This document shows positions 1,882-7,486 of a DNA stretch of 7,486 nucleotides, in pieces (position 1 is the stretch's first letter; every line of letters starts with the position of its first letter). Origin of the DNA: JAMORN01 sp027063545 [NCBI: bacterium] (lineage in GTDB: Bacteria; JAMORN01). A model generated the notes under the pieces. It worked only from the letters and a program-made list of their open reading frames with translations. It was not told where the DNA came from and did not search any database. Made by a program: the position numbers and the translations under genes. The DNA is taken from positions 1-7,486 of the forward strand of contig JAMORN010000130.1 in NCBI GenBank assembly GCA_027063545.1, in the 5' to 3' direction.

Positions 1882-1897
1882 TGGCACAAGATTTGTA
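1882..1897 (+). promoter_or_regulatory. Probable sigma-54 (-24/-12) promoter for flgHI
   Basis: The sequence TGGCACAAGATTTGTA begins 3 bases after the flgA stop. It has a full TGGCAC -24 element. GG (1883-1884) is separated by exactly 10 bases from GT (1895-1896), which sits where the -12 GC is expected. The only departure from the core consensus is T for C in the -12 dinucleotide. Sigma-54 control of rod, ring and hook genes is established in several flagellated bacteria. The predicted transcription start is near 1908, giving a leader of about 72 bases before flgH. An activator would bind upstream, inside flgA; no activator site was identified. Confidence 0.6.
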
Positions 1898-1963: not shown

Positions 1964-1979
1964 GGAAAGGGAGGGAAAT
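1964..1979 (+). promoter_or_regulatory. Atypical G-run ribosome-binding site of flgH
   Basis: The purine tract GGAAAGGGAGGGAAAT ends two bases before the flgH ATG. It contains the core GGAGG but is built from two GGG runs, unlike the AAAGGAGG of flgG. It fixes the flgH start at 1981. The whole stretch can pair with the pyrimidine tract at 3838-3853 downstream of flgI (14 uninterrupted Watson-Crick pairs, then G-U and G-C). Confidence 0.65.
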
Positions 1980-1980
1980 T

Positions 1981-2550
1981 ATGAAACGAAAGCTATTAAA
2001 AATAATAATTTTTATTATCCTATTTTCGTCAATAACTTATGCTTATGATATTTACTCTCTTTATACCCCCAAACGTCCATATAAAGAGGGTGATATTATA
2101 ACTGTTATTATTGCAGAAGAGGCAAATGCTCAAAACATAGCAGCAACAAAAACAAAAGTCTCAGCAGAACAAAATTTAAATGTTAAAGCAGGAACAGGAA
2201 TTTTAGATTTTATAAAAGCTTTTAGTGGTGGTTCTTCTCAAAAATCCGATTATTATGGCAATGGATCTACTCTAAAAAAAGGAGAACTTGATGCTAAAAT
2301 TTCTGTTAAGGTGATTAAAGTTCTTGATAATGGAAATCTTTTAATAGAAGGCTCTAAAGTTGTAGAGATTAATAATGAAAATGAAATTATAGAAGTAAGA
2401 GGGATAATAAGACCTTCTGACATTGCTCATGACAATACAATTTATTCCTACAAAATTACAGACGCAAGAATTACATATAAAGGAAATGGTGTTGTAAATA
2501 ATTCTCAAAAACCGGGAATTATAACAAGATTTTTTAACTGGTTGTTCTAG
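1981..2550 (+). CDS. flgH: Flagellar L-ring protein FlgH (no lipobox)
   Basis: The protein has 189 residues and is shorter than the roughly 230 of enterobacterial FlgH. FlgH forms the L-ring bushing in the outer membrane. Diagnostic segments are YKEGDIITVIIAEEANA (34-50), GELDAKISVKVIKVLDNGNL (101-120), LIEGSKVVEINNENE (121-135) and RGIIRPSDIAHDNTIYSYKI to DARITYKGNG (140-170). A signal peptide is present (residues 1-21, hydrophobic 8-16, likely cleavage after TYA). There is no cysteine anywhere in the protein, so the N-terminal lipidation typical of FlgH cannot occur by the usual route. The start is fixed by the purine-rich ribosome-binding site ending 2 bases upstream. It lies 102 bases after flgA and 45 before flgI, and probably has its own sigma-54 promoter. 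Confidence 0.93.
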   Translation: MKRKLLKIIIFIILFSSITYAYDIYSLYTPKRPYKEGDIITVIIAEEANAQNIAATKTKVSAEQNLNVKAGTGILDFIKAFSGGSSQKSDYYGNGSTLKKGELDAKISVKVIKVLDNGNLLIEGSKVVEINNENEIIEVRGIIRPSDIAHDNTIYSYKITDARITYKGNGVVNNSQKPGIITRFFNWLF

Positions 2551-2582: not shown

Positions 2583-2595
2583 GGGGAAGGGAAAG
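2583..2595 (+). promoter_or_regulatory. Atypical ribosome-binding site of flgI
   Basis: GGGGAAGGGAAAG lies directly against the flgI ATG at 2596. It lacks a true GGAGG core and is made of G runs separated by A. It can form 13 consecutive pairs (with G-U at both ends) with the pyrimidine tract at 3849-3861, adjacent to the part that matches the flgH site. Confidence 0.5.
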
Positions 2596-3837
2596 ATGAG
2601 AAAAGATTTAATAAAAATTGGTATAATAATTATAATCTTATTCCTCCTTTCAACATATGCAGCTTTATATGCGCAACAAAATCAAGGCTTTATGAGAATA
2701 AAAGATATGGCTCATATTCAAGGATATAGTAAAGTAAAACTTATAGGGTATGGCCTTGTTGTTGGTCTTGATGGGACAGGAGATTCAAGAAGCGCAAGAT
2801 TTACAATAAACTCTATTGCTAATATGCTTGCTAAATTTGGAATAGAAATAGACTCTAAAAGACTCAGAACAAGAAATGTTGCTGCTGTTATGGTTACTGC
2901 AGAAATTAATCCTTTTATGAAAAAAGGAACACCTATTGATGTTACAATATCTTCTATTGGAGATGCAAAAAGTTTAAAAGGTGGAACACTTCTTATGACT
3001 CCTCTTACAATAAATGGAGAGGATATTTATGCTGTTGCACAAGGCCCAACTTTTGTAGGTGGATATGAATATACCACACGAGATTTAGGATATTTAAAAC
3101 ACAATCATACTCTTGTTTCAAGAATTCCAAATGGTGCTGTATTAGTTAAAGAACTAAAATCTCCTTTAGAATCAATTAAAGATAGCTTTTATATTTATTT
3201 AAATAGACCTGACTTTACAAATGCTTTGAGGGTTGCAAATGCAATTAATAATAATCTATCTCAAAATTATGGTGTTCAGTCTCTTGCTGAGGCTATTGAT
3301 CCATCTACAATTTTAGTTAGAATACCACAAAACTATAATAATAAAGTGGGAATAATGAAATTAATTTCTGATATAGAAGGGCTTTATATAAACCCTGATA
3401 CTGAAAATAAAATAGTTATTAACGAAAGAACAGGAACAATTGTTATTGGGGGTGATGTTAGAATTAGACCTGTTGCTATTGCTCATAGTAATTTATCTAT
3501 AAGAATAGGTTCTCCAACAAAGATATATAGAAAAATGGTTAATGTTGCTCAAGGAGATATAAATGTAACTCCACAACTTACTACTGGTGATGTTATTCTA
3601 ACAGATTCTTTAATCGTTAATGTTTCTGGTGGAAATGTAAATGTTAATCCTACCCAAATCAATCAAGTAAATCCTAACAATCCAAGGGAAAAATTTATAA
3701 ATCTTCCAGCAACAACAACTATTCAAGATTTAACAAACGCTTTAAATCAATTAGGAGTAAAACCAAGAGATATTATAACAATTATTCAACTATTAAAAAA
3801 TGCTGGAGCAATTAATGCAGAAATTGTTGTGATGTAG
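2596..3837 (+). CDS. flgI: Flagellar P-ring protein FlgI
   Basis: The protein has 413 residues, longer than the E. coli protein (365). The Sec signal peptide covers residues 1-26 with likely cleavage at LYA/QQ. FlgI signatures run along the whole length: RIKDMAHIQGYSKVKLIGYG (34-53), LVVGLDGTGDS (54-64), RNVAAVMVTAEINPFMKKGT (93-112), IDVTISSIGDAKSLKGGTLL (114-133), INERTGTIVIGGDVRIRPVA (275-294) and the C-terminal LGVKPRDIITIIQLLKNAGA then EIVVM. It forms the periplasmic P-ring around the rod, with FlgA as its chaperone. An Asn/Val-rich stretch at about 341-369 interrupts the region before the C-terminal helix. There is no cysteine, whereas the E. coli protein relies on an intramolecular disulfide. 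No flgJ follows; the next genes are convergent. Confidence 0.97.
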   Translation: MRKDLIKIGIIIIILFLLSTYAALYAQQNQGFMRIKDMAHIQGYSKVKLIGYGLVVGLDGTGDSRSARFTINSIANMLAKFGIEIDSKRLRTRNVAAVMVTAEINPFMKKGTPIDVTISSIGDAKSLKGGTLLMTPLTINGEDIYAVAQGPTFVGGYEYTTRDLGYLKHNHTLVSRIPNGAVLVKELKSPLESIKDSFYIYLNRPDFTNALRVANAINNNLSQNYGVQSLAEAIDPSTILVRIPQNYNNKVGIMKLISDIEGLYINPDTENKIVINERTGTIVIGGDVRIRPVAIAHSNLSIRIGSPTKIYRKMVNVAQGDINVTPQLTTGDVILTDSLIVNVSGGNVNVNPTQINQVNPNNPREKFINLPATTTIQDLTNALNQLGVKPRDIITIIQLLKNAGAINAEIVVM

Positions 3838-3866
3838 ATTTCCCTCCCTTTTCCCTTCCCTCCCCA
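3838..3866. promoter_or_regulatory. C-rich tract in flgI 3' UTR; G-quadruplex motif on - strand; anti-Shine-Dalgarno complementarity
   Basis: Immediately after the flgI stop the + strand is almost pure pyrimidine, with five C runs (3842-3844, 3846-3848, 3853-3855, 3858-3860, 3862-3865) separated by 1, 4, 2 and 1 T. On the - strand this fits the G3+N1-7 quadruplex pattern and stands out sharply in DNA of about 30% GC. In the + strand mRNA it is complementary to the ribosome-binding sites of flgH (3838-3853 with 1964-1979) and flgI (3849-3861 with 2583-2595). The sequence pattern is directly visible; a regulatory role is inference. Confidence 0.5.
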
Positions 3867-3905
3867 GATGACTTGGGAGTGTTTACTCTTAAAGTTGTCT
3901 GGGGA
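3861..3905 (+). terminator. Long hairpin between convergent flgI and recG, probable end of the flagellar transcript
   Basis: Arms 3861-3880 and 3885-3905 form a stem of 20 pairs with one bulged A (3891) and a GTTT loop (3881-3884). The base of the stem is TCCCCAGA / TCTGGGGA. Four pairs are G-U in the + strand RNA (3869-3897, 3870-3896, 3875-3890, 3876-3889). In the - strand RNA they become A-C mismatches, so the continuous stem belongs to the flgI transcript. A T6 run (3919-3924) follows only 13 bases later, so this is not a textbook intrinsic terminator. It may instead stabilise the 3' end or work with a factor. Confidence 0.5.
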
Positions 3906-3922
3906 ATATCTATATTAATTTT

Positions 3923-6040
3923 TTATGCTTCAAGTCTTACTAATTTATCCTTATACTCCTCTGCCAGATATTCAATTAAATCTGAAGAGAATCTCTTATC
4001 TTCTATAGATAAACTATCAAGATTCTTTATATACACCCTTATAAAATCCTTGATCTTTGCTATTAAATTTCCATCTCTTATTAGATTTATAAATCTAAAT
4101 TCAGTAAGACCAGATTGTCTTACACCTGTTAATTCTCCGGGTCCTCTTATTTTTAAATCCTCTTCTGCTATTTCAAAACCAGAATTTGTTTTTTCTAAAA
4201 TATAAAGTCTTCTTAAAGAATCGGGAGAAATATTCTCTGAGGTTATTAAAAAACAATATGATTCATACTCCCCTCTTCCAACTCTACCTCTTAATTGATG
4301 AAGTTGAGAAAGACCAAACCTTTCAGCATTTTCAATAACCATTACTGTTGCATTTGGCACATCAATTCCAACTTCAATTACAGTTGTAGAAACAAGTATA
4401 TCATATTTTTTATTTCTAAAATCATTTAAAATCCTTTCCTTTTCTTCACTCTTCATTTTTCCATGAAGAAGCCCAACATTAAACTCTTTAAAAACAACCT
4501 CATTAAGCCTGTTTGCACTTTCTATTGCACTTTTTAAATTTAACCTTTCATTCTCTTCTATTAAAGGATAAATAAAATAAGCCTGTCTCCCCTTTTTTAA
4601 TTCTTGTTTTAGAAAATTATAAACTTTTTCTATTTTATCTGATTTAATAACATAAGTTTTTACTGGCTTTCTTCCCGGAGGCATCTCATCAATTATTGAA
4701 ACATCCAAATCACCATAAAGGGTTTGGGTTAAGGTTCTTGGAATAGGCGTTGCTGTCATATAGATCAAATGTGGCTTAAAAGGTGCTTTTGAATGCTCTA
4801 TTAGTTTACCTCTTTGCTCAACACCAAATCTATGCTGCTCATCTACAATTGCAAGTGCTAAAGAAGAAAACTCAACATCATCTTCTATCAAAGCATGGGT
4901 TCCTATAACTATTGCTGGATCTCCATTTTTTAGAATTGTTTTTATTTTATCCTTTTCTTTCTTTTTTGTATCTCCTATTAATAAATAAATTGGGAAATTT
5001 TTTCCAAAAAGCATTGAGGTTAATTTTTGATAGTGCTGACGAGCTAATACTTCTGTAGGAGCCATCATAACAGTTTGATAACCAAAAGATGTAAAAAGAA
5101 TCATAAAGAAAAAAGCAACTGCAGTTTTTCCACTACCAACATCTCCTTGAATTAATCTATTTACAACCTTTCCATCTTTTATATCTTTTAGAATTTCAGA
5201 AACAACTCTTTTTTGTGCATTTGTAAATTCAAACGGGAAAAAAGAATATAAGTGTTTAACATCATTTTCTGTTATATCTATTCTAATACCTCTTGATAAT
5301 TTATCCTTCTGGCGTTTATATTCAAGTAAAAACATTAAAGGATATATCTCCTCAAATTTCATTCTAAGAATAGCTTTTTTGTAATTTTCTCTATCTGTGG
5401 GAAAATGAAGTTCTTTTAAAGATTCATATAAGGGTAAAAATTTTATTACCTTTAAAAAACTCTCTGGTAAATACTCAGTTATTTCATCCTTAACATAATC
5501 AAGGGCTGTTTTTATTATTTTTGAAAGAAATTTAGAATCTATGGAAAAAGATTTCATCTTATCAGTTATTCTATATACTGGATAAATACCTGTTTTCTCC
5601 TTTAATTCTTCATCAGAAAAAACCTTTTCAAACTCTGGATGAACAATCTGCCACATATTAAACATATAATGAGCCTTACCTGATGCTATAATCTTATCAC
5701 CTATTTGAAAAAAATTTTTAAGCCATGAGGAATATTTGAAAAATATTAAACTTATAAAAAAATTTTCACAATAAAGAAGTACTCTTAAACGTTTAGTATT
5801 TTTTCCAATCTCTTCAACTGACTGAACCTCTCCAAATACAGTTATATATTTATTCTCCTCTATTGTTTGATAGGTATCTAAATTAGACCTATCTATATAT
5901 GTTTTTGGAAAATAAAGTAGAATATCACCAATAGTATAAAAGCCCAGCTTGTTAAACTGGGCTTTTCTTTTTTTTCCTATACCTTTAAGATTATCAATTG
6001 GCTCTTTTAAAACAGGATAAAACCTTTCAAAATAGAACAT
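3923..6040 (-). CDS. recG: ATP-dependent DNA helicase RecG
   Basis: The protein has 705 residues, close to the E. coli length of 693. RecG is a double-stranded DNA translocase that regresses stalled forks and processes branched intermediates. The N-terminal wedge domain begins with the helix-hairpin-like LKGIGKKRKAQFNKLGFYTI (18-37), followed by an OB-fold region to about residue 140. Superfamily 2 motifs are intact: Walker A GDVGSGKT (299-306), Ia MAPTEVLARQH (326-336), II DEQH (400-403), III TATPIPRT (429-436), V STTVIEVGIDVPNA (551-564) and VI QLRGRVGRG (582-590). The RecG-specific C-terminal segment LEKTNSGFEIAEEDLKIRGP follows at 615-634. A stop just upstream in frame limits the start to this ATG, which has no clear Shine-Dalgarno sequence. 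It lies 13 bases after recA, so co-transcription is likely. Confidence 0.98.
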   Translation of the reverse strand: MFYFERFYPVLKEPIDNLKGIGKKRKAQFNKLGFYTIGDILLYFPKTYIDRSNLDTYQTIEENKYITVFGEVQSVEEIGKNTKRLRVLLYCENFFISLIFFKYSSWLKNFFQIGDKIIASGKAHYMFNMWQIVHPEFEKVFSDEELKEKTGIYPVYRITDKMKSFSIDSKFLSKIIKTALDYVKDEITEYLPESFLKVIKFLPLYESLKELHFPTDRENYKKAILRMKFEEIYPLMFLLEYKRQKDKLSRGIRIDITENDVKHLYSFFPFEFTNAQKRVVSEILKDIKDGKVVNRLIQGDVGSGKTAVAFFFMILFTSFGYQTVMMAPTEVLARQHYQKLTSMLFGKNFPIYLLIGDTKKKEKDKIKTILKNGDPAIVIGTHALIEDDVEFSSLALAIVDEQHRFGVEQRGKLIEHSKAPFKPHLIYMTATPIPRTLTQTLYGDLDVSIIDEMPPGRKPVKTYVIKSDKIEKVYNFLKQELKKGRQAYFIYPLIEENERLNLKSAIESANRLNEVVFKEFNVGLLHGKMKSEEKERILNDFRNKKYDILVSTTVIEVGIDVPNATVMVIENAERFGLSQLHQLRGRVGRGEYESYCFLITSENISPDSLRRLYILEKTNSGFEIAEEDLKIRGPGELTGVRQSGLTEFRFINLIRDGNLIAKIKDFIRVYIKNLDSLSIEDKRFSSDLIEYLAEEYKDKLVRLEA
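5938..5975 (+). terminator. Terminator-like hairpin plus T8 inside recG, antisense orientation
   Basis: AAAAGCCCAG (5938-5947) and CTGGGCTTTT (5957-5966) form a perfect 10-pair stem with a 9-base loop. On the + strand a C and T8 (5968-5975) follow, giving the form of an intrinsic terminator for transcription antisense to recG. The segment encodes RecG residues 27-34 and uses GC-ending codons (GCC, CAG, AAC, CTG, GGC) that contrast with the A/T-ending codons around it. In the recG sense direction the hairpin is followed only by TTTTAT, a poor terminator. It might block antisense read-through towards recA, or it might be a by-product of coding sequence. Confidence 0.4.
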
Positions 6041-6053
6041 AAAAGAATATTAT

Positions 6054-7103
6054 CTATTGTTCCTTTTCTACCTTATTAGAATCGTTTTGCTCTTCCTCTT
6101 CTAAGCCTAAATATATCCTCACACTTCTATAAATCTCTTCAAAAATATCTGGATGATTTTTCATAAATTCTATAGCATTATCCTTTCCTTGGCCTAATTT
6201 TTCGTTTTTATATGAATACCAAGAGCCACTTTTATCTACAATTCCTGCTTCTACAGCAATATTTAATACATCACTATAAACCGAAAAACCTTCGCCATAT
6301 ATAACATCAACACTTGTTTGTCTGAATGGAGCAGCAAGTTTATTTTTTACTACCTTTATTGTTACTGTATCACCTAAAACTGCATCATTCTTTTTTAGTG
6401 TTTGAGATTTCTTTTTTAACTCAATTCTTATTGAAGCATAAAACTTTAAAGCATTACCTCCTGTTGTTACCTCTGGATTTCCAAACATCACGCCAACTTT
6501 GGATCTTAATTGATTTATAAATATCATACAAGTTTTTGATTTATTTACAGAAGAGGTTAATTTTCTTAAAGCCTGAGACATAAGCCTTGCTTGTAGAGCA
6601 ATGTTAGCATCACCCATATCACCTTCCAACTCTGCTCTTGGCACCAAGGCTGCAACTGAATCTATTATTATAACATCTATTGCTCCACTTCTAACAAGTG
6701 TTTCTGCTATTTCAAGAGCCTGCTCTCCATAATCAGGTTGGGAAACTAAAAGAGAATCAATATCAATACCTAAAGCTTTGGCATAATTTGGATCAAAAGC
6801 ATGTTCTGCATCAATAAAAGCAGCCACACCACCTTGTTTTTGAGCCTGAGCAACTACATGAAGCGCTAAGGTTGTTTTTCCTGAAGATTCATTACCATAT
6901 ATCTCAATTATTCTACCCCTTGGCATTCCACCAATTCCTAAAATAGCATCTACTGAAGGAATCCCTGTTGGTATAACCTCTGTTTGAGTGTGAGCCTTTT
7001 CCCCTAAAGCCATTATAGAGCCTTTTCCATAGGCCTTTTCTATTTGACTAATAACAGATTCTATTGCTTTTTTCTTATTTTTGTCTATATTTTCAAATGG
7101 CAT
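6054..7103 (-). CDS. recA: Recombinase RecA
   Basis: The protein has 349 residues (E. coli 353). RecA forms ATP-dependent filaments on single-stranded DNA, catalyses strand exchange and promotes LexA-type cleavage. Visible motifs are the N-terminal oligomerisation helix ([19 protein letters not shown], 13-31), Walker A GNESSGKT (70-77), catalytic Glu100 in FIDAEH, Walker [16 protein letters not shown] (144-158), loop L1 around EGDMGD (160-165), Gln198 in FINQLR and loop L2 with [20 protein letters not shown] (205-224). The second P-loop residue is Asn where E. coli has Pro. The C-terminus is acidic (LEEEEQND). The ATG is preceded by AGGGAGG 7 bases upstream (minus strand, 7111-7117), which supports this start. 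recG follows 13 bases downstream. There is no recX in the interval. Confidence 0.99.
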
Positions 7104-7196: not shown

Positions 7197-7486
7197 TTAA
7201 AATAAATAAGTGTCTAATTCATTATATATTCTATCAAGTTCTTTTTTGAGTCTTGGATCTTTTTTATCTAACCAACCTTTATCAAACCAATAATGATAAG
7301 AAGTATGGACAATATTCCAACCTGCTCTTTTTAAAACCTTAATTCTTTCAATATGTTCATCTACTAGATATTTTCCTGTTTCATCAAAATGATTTTTACC
7401 ATCAACTTCTATTGCCACATATTTTTTATTATTTGTGTTATATAATACAAAATCTAATCTATATTTATTAACTGTTTTAACTTGAT
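7197..7486 (-). CDS. C-terminal part of a restriction-endonuclease-like (DUF559/MTES_1575-type) protein, 5' end outside window
   Basis: The frame is open from the right edge, giving about 95 residues. A GTG at 7418 is an internal Val codon, since VNKYRLDFVLYN…YVAIEVDGKNH reads as one domain across it. The pattern is an Asp in YRLDFVL, then IEVDG, then HIERIKVLKRAGWNIVHTSYH. This is characteristic of PD-(D/E)XK-like nuclease domains such as DUF559/Vsr-like or REase_MTES_1575. These occur alone or at the C-terminus of large helicase or AAA proteins. D of RLDF and E of IEVD are the probable metal ligands, with the usual Lys replaced by Asp. What lies N-terminal cannot be seen, so the substrate and full architecture are unknown. 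The stop is 93 bases before recA, in the same direction. Confidence 0.7.
   Translation of the reverse strand, partial: QVKTVNKYRLDFVLYNTNNKKYVAIEVDGKNHFDETGKYLVDEHIERIKVLKRAGWNIVHTSYHYWFDKGWLDKKDPRLKKELDRIYNELDTYLF

What the first reader, a model, noticed from the sequence alone, without database searches (positions are those of the whole stretch)
3838..3861. flgI 3' UTR carries an anti-Shine-Dalgarno tract matching both flgH and flgI ribosome-binding sites
The pyrimidine tract after flgI pairs with the flgH site as 3838-3853 : 1964-1979, with 14 uninterrupted Watson-Crick pairs, then one G-U and one G-C. It pairs with the flgI site as 3849-3861 : 2583-2595, with 11 Watson-Crick pairs flanked by two G-U. 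The two matched segments are adjacent, overlapping by 5 bases, and both target sites are atypical (GGGAGGG and GGGGAAGGG rather than AGGAGG). If the mRNA folds back, or if a 3'-end fragment is released as a small RNA, translation of both ring proteins could be repressed together. The caveat is that any C/U-rich tract will partly match purine-rich ribosome-binding sites, including that of recA (7 bases, AGGGAGG).
Basis: partly seen in the sequence, partly recalled or inferred. Interest (0 to 1): 0.65.

Follow-up and report, generated by a model that had tools for sequence, protein, structure and literature searches.

The report
Flagellar 3'-end anti-ribosome-site tract
Just after the last flagellar ring gene, an AT-rich bacterium carries a short C/T-rich stretch that is a near-perfect complement of the ribosome-landing sites of both ring genes and of a rod gene elsewhere in the genome, which suggests an untested RNA feedback brake on flagellum building.

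Summary
The tract 3838-3864 pairs with the flgH ribosome-binding site (RBS; 14 Watson-Crick pairs, 16 with one G-U) and the flgI RBS (11, or 13 with two G-U). Among 543 translation-initiation regions (TIRs) from 121 of 355 contigs of this 23% G+C genome, flgH and flgI are two of the three best partners by duplex energy. The third is flgB, a flagellar rod gene on another contig, met in a whole-genome search with the tract. Of 1,611 same-strand pairs of a 3' flank and an upstream TIR, these two score 14 and 11; the next scores 9. No permuted tract of 20,000 reaches both values. Against: the flgI match alone is unremarkable (918 of 20,000), and 258 of 500 permuted tracts match some TIR by 11 or more.

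Best reading (0.47): a 3' UTR, or a small RNA processed from it, that represses flgH, flgI and flgB by masking their RBSs; flgB points to action in trans. No genome of the same phylum is held, so covariation could not be tested. Rivals: minus-strand G-quadruplex, Rho site or terminator, shared CsrA sites, chance. Kin: icaR, OppZ/CarZ, FlmE.

The parts
3838..3864 (+). C/T tract (anti-Shine-Dalgarno) in the 3' UTR of flgI, directly after the stop codon (the pure C/T run itself is 3839-3865)
   Evidence: Sequence; by number of C the second C/T run of 10 or more bases in the window plus 100 contigs (537 kb); predicted unpaired >=0.8 at 3840-3860
3838..3853 (+). segment complementary to the flgH RBS (also 14 Watson-Crick pairs with the flgB RBS on contig C85)
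3849..3861 (+). segment complementary to the flgI RBS
1964..1979 (+). flgH RBS, GGAAAGGGAGGGAAAT, start codon at 1981
   Evidence: FlgH by Pfam PF02107 E 2.4e-47
2583..2595 (+). flgI RBS, GGGGAAGGGAAAG, start codon at 2596
   Evidence: FlgI by Pfam PF02119 E 1.6e-111
3861..3905 (+). strong hairpin directly after the tract; T-run at 3919-3924
   Evidence: -28.2 kcal/mol for 3838-3924; -33.5 with an outer A/U stem 3830-3839:3908-3917 that would leave the tract as a bulge and end one base before the T-run
1882..1897 (+). sigma-54-type promoter-like site TGGCACAAGATTTGTA between flgA and flgH (one mismatch)
   Evidence: scan; rpoN gene in genome; consensus recalled
1981..2550 (+). flgH (L-ring)
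2596..3837 (+). flgI (P-ring)
3842..3865 (-). same DNA read on the other strand: polypurine tract with five runs of >=3 G, G-quadruplex motif downstream of recG (rival reading)
   Evidence: only motif of its kind in the window plus 100 contigs; minus-strand fold falls from -26.6 to -41.7 kcal/mol when quadruplexes are allowed

Best explanation
The flgI 3' UTR is a feedback brake. The flgHI transcript, possibly made from a sigma-54 promoter before flgH, ends in an exposed C/U tract plus a stable hairpin. The 3' end, most likely as a processed small RNA and possibly also by fold-back of the whole mRNA, base-pairs with the Shine-Dalgarno regions of flgH, flgI and, in trans, flgB. That would block ribosome loading (and could expose the duplex to RNase III), so that ring and rod protein synthesis falls as the transcript accumulates. 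Shown here: the complementarity, its preference for three flagellar RBSs in the sample, the predicted exposed tract and hairpin, promoter-like sites and an rpoN gene. Inferred: transcript ends, processing, in vivo pairing, repression and its purpose.
For:: of 543 TIRs the three best by duplex energy and by run are flgH (14, -26.2), flgI (11, -25.2) and flgB (14, -24.8); no other TIR has a run above 9. With competing structure allowed (cofold) they rank flgB 1, flgI 2, flgH 4; flgB came out of a whole-genome search with the tract and hairpin; best two of 1,611 same-contig pairs of a 3' flank and an upstream TIR; of the seven GGGAGGGAA sites in 1.57 Mb, two lie in the tract and two are the flgH and flgB RBSs; the other three (C213, C267, C313) have no start codon with an ORF of more than 30 aa just after them; 0 of 20,000 permuted tracts reach both values; sigma-54-like sites begin 60 bases before flgB and 99 before flgH. 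Precedents: icaR, OppZ/CarZ, FlmE.
Against: No relative, so no covariation. No Hfq found (assembly 82.7% complete). The flgI match alone is common among permuted tracts (918 of 20,000) and its energy is matched by 290 of 2,000. The flgH and flgI RBSs are predicted to pair with their own early coding sequence (about 2048-2062 and 2642-2654), which competes and is itself a possible control. Other flagellar TIRs scanned do not match well: flgC, fliE, fliF, fliG, fliH, fliI, fliJ, flgJ, flgN, flgK have runs of 4-7, fliK and flgD 6, flgG and flagellin 5, csrA 6, fliW 9. Two of four sigma-54-linked flagellar leaders have ordinary RBSs. flgB and flgH being alike could have another cause (CsrA, see rivals). 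Only 40% of the genome's bases were scanned for TIRs.
Confidence: 0.47

Rival explanations
1. DNA or RNA G-quadruplex: on the minus strand the tract reads GGGGAGGGAAGGGAAAAGGGAGGG. It could fold as a quadruplex in the template strand of flgI or in recG read-through RNA, acting as a pause or barrier between convergent genes. The RBS match would be a by-product of both being G/A-rich.
For: Only such motif in the window plus 100 contigs; strong predicted gain with quadruplexes allowed; position between convergent flgI and recG.
Against: Does not explain the matching spacing of G-runs and the AAAT flank shared with flgH and flgB, nor that the best three of 543 partners are flagellar.
Confidence: 0.15
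2. Terminator accessory: a C-rich, G-poor loading site for Rho, or simply the lead-in of the strong hairpin. The RBS complementarity is incidental.
For: rho present (577.7 bits); a 27-base run without G or A; strong hairpin and T-run follow. Terminator-like arms ending in C-rich plus T-runs elsewhere also match RBSs, e.g. the hairpin after flagellin on C151 matches the flgI RBS by 12.
Against: In one search the long matches of other 3' flanks scatter over unrelated genes; known Rho sites are longer (recalled).
Confidence: 0.14
3. The flagellar RBSs are alike because a protein such as CsrA binds them (AGGGA repeats), and the tract is unrelated or masks CsrA sites.
For: csrA follows fliW on C143. 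Of 543 TIRs, 17 have two or more ANGGA motifs (a recalled CsrA motif), and four of these 17 are flagellar: flgH (three motifs, the most), flgB, flgN and flagellin, against at least 16 flagellar or fliW/csrA genes known in the sample.
Against: A protein does not need a complementary tract; flgI is not among the 17; flgN and flagellin do not match the tract well.
Confidence: 0.12
4. Chance or mutational by-product (for example a template-switch copy of RBS-like purine sequence), without function.
For: Permuted tracts often match some TIR by 11 or more (258 of 500), and three or more TIRs in 51 of 500; no conservation testable.
Against: Joint match to both genes of the same operon in 0 of 20,000 permutations; best two of 1,611; third partner flagellar.
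Confidence: 0.12

Closest known systems
icaR 3'-UTR/5'-UTR pairing, Staphylococcus aureus (PMC3868564; abstract and passages read)
   Same: C-rich anti-SD motif (UCCCCUG) in a 3' UTR pairs with the SD region of the same mRNA.
   Different: There a 7-base motif, one gene, a long 3' UTR and experimental proof; here 14 and 11 Watson-Crick pairs to two cistrons plus a third gene elsewhere, a short predicted 3' UTR, no experiment.
OppZ and CarZ, Vibrio cholerae (PMC7398697; abstract and passages read)
   Same: RNA from the 3' UTR of an operon base-pairs with its own transcript and inhibits translation.
   Different: OppZ repression of oppB is strongly reduced in E. coli lacking hfq and depends on RNase E maturation; here no Hfq was found and processing is unknown; an additional target on another contig (flgB) is predicted.
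FlmE/CJnc230, Campylobacter jejuni (PMC11187230; abstract and section list read)
   Same: Small RNA processed from an RpoN-dependent flagellar mRNA (flgE), regulating flagellar genes.
   Different: The direct targets named are flgM and Cj1387c, not its own operon.
UhpU, MotR, FliX, FlgO, Escherichia coli (PMC10578931; abstract and section list read)
   Same: UTR-derived RNAs tuning flagella.
   Different: Sigma-28 dependent; MotR and FliX pair within coding sequences.

Membership tests
3' UTR anti-SD pairing with the own mRNA (icaR type) | 3' UTR motif complementary to the SD of the same mRNA | tested here: met
   (same mRNA is inferred from gene order)
3' UTR anti-SD pairing with the own mRNA (icaR type) | pairing blocks initiation and creates an RNase III substrate | not testable with these tools
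   no transcript or bench data
autoregulatory 3' UTR-derived sRNA (OppZ/CarZ type) | 3' UTR ends in a terminator hairpin with an exposed pairing region | tested here: inconclusive
   exposed tract and strong hairpin predicted, but the T-run follows only the outer A/U stem and the terminator scan listed just a 5-pair part of the region; feature recalled
autoregulatory 3' UTR-derived sRNA (OppZ/CarZ type) | discrete stable RNA released by processing | not testable with these tools
   no RNA-seq
autoregulatory 3' UTR-derived sRNA (OppZ/CarZ type) | Hfq assistance (OppZ) | tested here: inconclusive
   no Hfq match in an 82.7% complete assembly
RNA family curated in Rfam | match over the gathering score | tested here: not met
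   3500-4200 searched, two sub-threshold hits only
G-quadruplex | four or more G-runs with short loops on one strand | tested here: met
   minus strand; formation itself untested

The most novel reading that the evidence does not exclude
A bipartite 3' UTR element that acts as a multi-target anti-Shine-Dalgarno RNA: one half silences the first cistron of its own operon and, in trans, the likely leading gene of another sigma-54 flagellar operon; the overlapping half silences the second cistron. Outer rings and rod would be throttled together, perhaps without Hfq.
Probability: 0.28. Interest if true: 0.72.

Novelty: new variant of a known kind. Interest (0 to 1): 0.5.

Why it matters
RNA feedback from the 3' end of an mRNA onto its own ribosome sites is documented for few genes in the papers seen here (icaR, opp, car). 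A case that ties together rod, P-ring and L-ring synthesis, in a lineage with no other held genome, would extend it to assembly of the flagellar basal body. It offers a simple test: three leaders, one tract, defined base pairs.

Tried and rejected
Relatives: the phylum search returned only the own genome. The genome-contig scan returned one distant Bacteroidetes locus. Of 40 other genomes, 16 had a flgI match; two very weak ones (L016, L017) were left out. In loci from the other 14 (same domain only), the longest match of the flgI or flgH 3' flank with the gene's own RBS was 9, and of the flgI flank with the flgH RBS 10, in 12 loci that hold flgH. C/T runs of 10 or more follow flgI in 3 of the 14 (L002, L007, L010); the one in L002 reads, by eye, as coding. 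One search gave an earlier, cruder table of these loci in which some strands were picked wrongly; it is not used. Covariation was not testable.

16S rRNA: none found in the assembly, so the anti-SD was not read directly; SD preference was taken from RBS counts. Rfam: nothing over threshold in 3500-4200. Own promoter for a small RNA: the scan lists no + strand sigma-70-like site between 3324 and 3838, so a processed RNA is favoured. No taxon name came from RecA.

Run length alone as proof was rejected. Papers: (12 of 86 listed) and 59 no listed title or abstract opening describes a flgH/flgI 3' UTR of this kind; only those searches were made. Passages of an S. aureus review (PMC9266662) added nothing used here. 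RepG/tlpB is recalled only.

TIR calls rest on a simple ORF finder with a recalled SD reference string; some starts are surely wrong (flgA, for one). fliH, fliI, fliJ, the flgJ-like gene (Pfam: SLT domain only) and the motE-like gene (below Pfam cut-offs) are named by eye or context, as are rpmH and queF.

Full report
What is there. The window is a whole contig (C130) of a 1.57 Mb, 355-contig assembly that is the only held genome of its phylum. It encodes the end of a gene not scanned (flgF-like by position), then flgG, flgA, flgH and flgI, and, convergent to them, recG and recA (recA by its matches). The sampled sequence is 23% G+C. Directly after the flgI stop codon comes a C/T tract (3838-3864), then a hairpin (3861-3905) and a T-run (3919-3924). 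The stretch 3830-3925 folds far better than shuffles (z -5.77, 0 of 200). The tract is predicted open (unpaired >=0.8 at 3840-3860). With 3830-3837 included, an outer A/U stem forms and leaves most of the tract as a bulge; the first two bases, 3838-3839, are then paired.

The pairing. Both duplexes are exactly as described. A search of the whole assembly with 3838-3915 gave four places: the tract itself, the flgH RBS, C85:244-257 (the same 14 bases), and a C119 site that matches the far end of the query. The C85 site lies before a gene whose product matches the flagellar rod domain (PF00460). By sequence, and because flgC begins near the end of another contig, I read it as flgB. Its start lies 60 bases after the beginning of a sigma-54-like site without mismatch.

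How special. Of 543 TIRs from 121 contigs (622,227 bases), runs of 14, 14 and 11 belong to flgH, flgB and flgI; all others are 9 or less. Duplex energies rank these three first; cofold energies, which allow competing structure, rank flgB 1, flgI 2 and flgH 4. In a test of every 100-base 3' flank against upstream TIRs on the same strand and contig (1,611 pairs; matches with at least four G/C), this tract gives the two longest (14 and 11); the third, 9, is not RBS-like. Across all 277,670 flank-TIR pairs, 42 reach 11 or more and 10 reach 13 or more, some from terminator-like arms, so length alone is weak evidence. Permuting the tract gives flgH >=14 in 60, flgI >=11 in 918 and both in 0 of 20,000; three or more TIRs with >=11 occur in 51 of 500. 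What is unusual is that the partners are the gene just before the tract, the gene before that, and a third flagellar gene.

Regulatory setting. rpoN, csrA and rho are present and Hfq was not found; fliW is next to csrA. A scan for sigma-54-like sites with at most one mismatch gives 24 in the sample, against 0-2 in five base shuffles; most are not placed closely before a gene. Four stand before flagellar genes: flgH (99 bases, one mismatch), and without mismatch flgB (60), a flgJ-like gene (53) and a motE-like gene upstream of fliK and flgD (71). Only flgB and flgH of these four have the GGGAGGG RBS. That motif is not exclusive to flagella: of 29 GGGAGGG sites genome-wide, four stand just before a start codon (flgH, flgB, an rpmH-like and a queF-like gene).

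Competing readings of the RBSs. Both flgH and flgI RBSs are predicted to pair with their own early coding sequence, so they may already be weak or controlled locally. CsrA-like ANGGA motifs occur twice or more in 17 of 543 TIRs, four of them flagellar: flgH, flgB, flgN and flagellin. Shared CsrA control could therefore account for the likeness of the flgH and flgB sites, though not for the complementary tract.

Mechanism. I favour RBS masking by the 3' UTR, mainly as a released RNA: flgB cannot be reached in cis if it is on a separate transcript, as the contigs suggest. The two matched halves overlap by 5 bases, so one RNA would serve one target at a time at full length. Repression is the expected outcome of masking an SD (as in icaR) but is not shown here.

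Limits. No transcript data, no covariation, a fragmented assembly, simple start-site calls, and about 60% of the bases not scanned for TIRs. The G-quadruplex reading of the other strand is real as a motif and cannot be excluded; both could coexist.

Noticed in passing
L115 (C151), about 3231-3260: A terminator-like hairpin after a flagellin gene has a C-rich 3' arm plus T-run that complements the flgI RBS by 12 bases; looks like an ordinary terminator arm.
   Followed up: partly
window 1882-1897 (+); L060 288-303 (-); L098 4601-4616 (+); L118 3009-3024 (+): Sigma-54-like promoter sites before flgH, flgB, a flgJ-like gene and a motE-like gene: a candidate sigma-54 flagellar regulon in this lineage.
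   Followed up: partly
L107 (C143) 5389-6089: fliW-csrA pair; the fliW RBS region also matches the tract by 9 bases.
   Followed up: partly
L145 (C138:1-37) and L155 (C289:117-153): The same palindrome-like stretch with GGGAGGG sites in opposite orientation stands near the ends of two contigs.
   Followed up: no
window 2641-2651 and 2048-2062: Early flgI and flgH coding sequences are predicted to pair with their own RBSs; the flgI stretch reads TTCCTCCTTTC.
   Followed up: partly
window 7197-7484 (-): Partial gene with a restriction-endonuclease-like domain (PF18741 MTES_1575) and a RAP match at the contig end.
   Followed up: no
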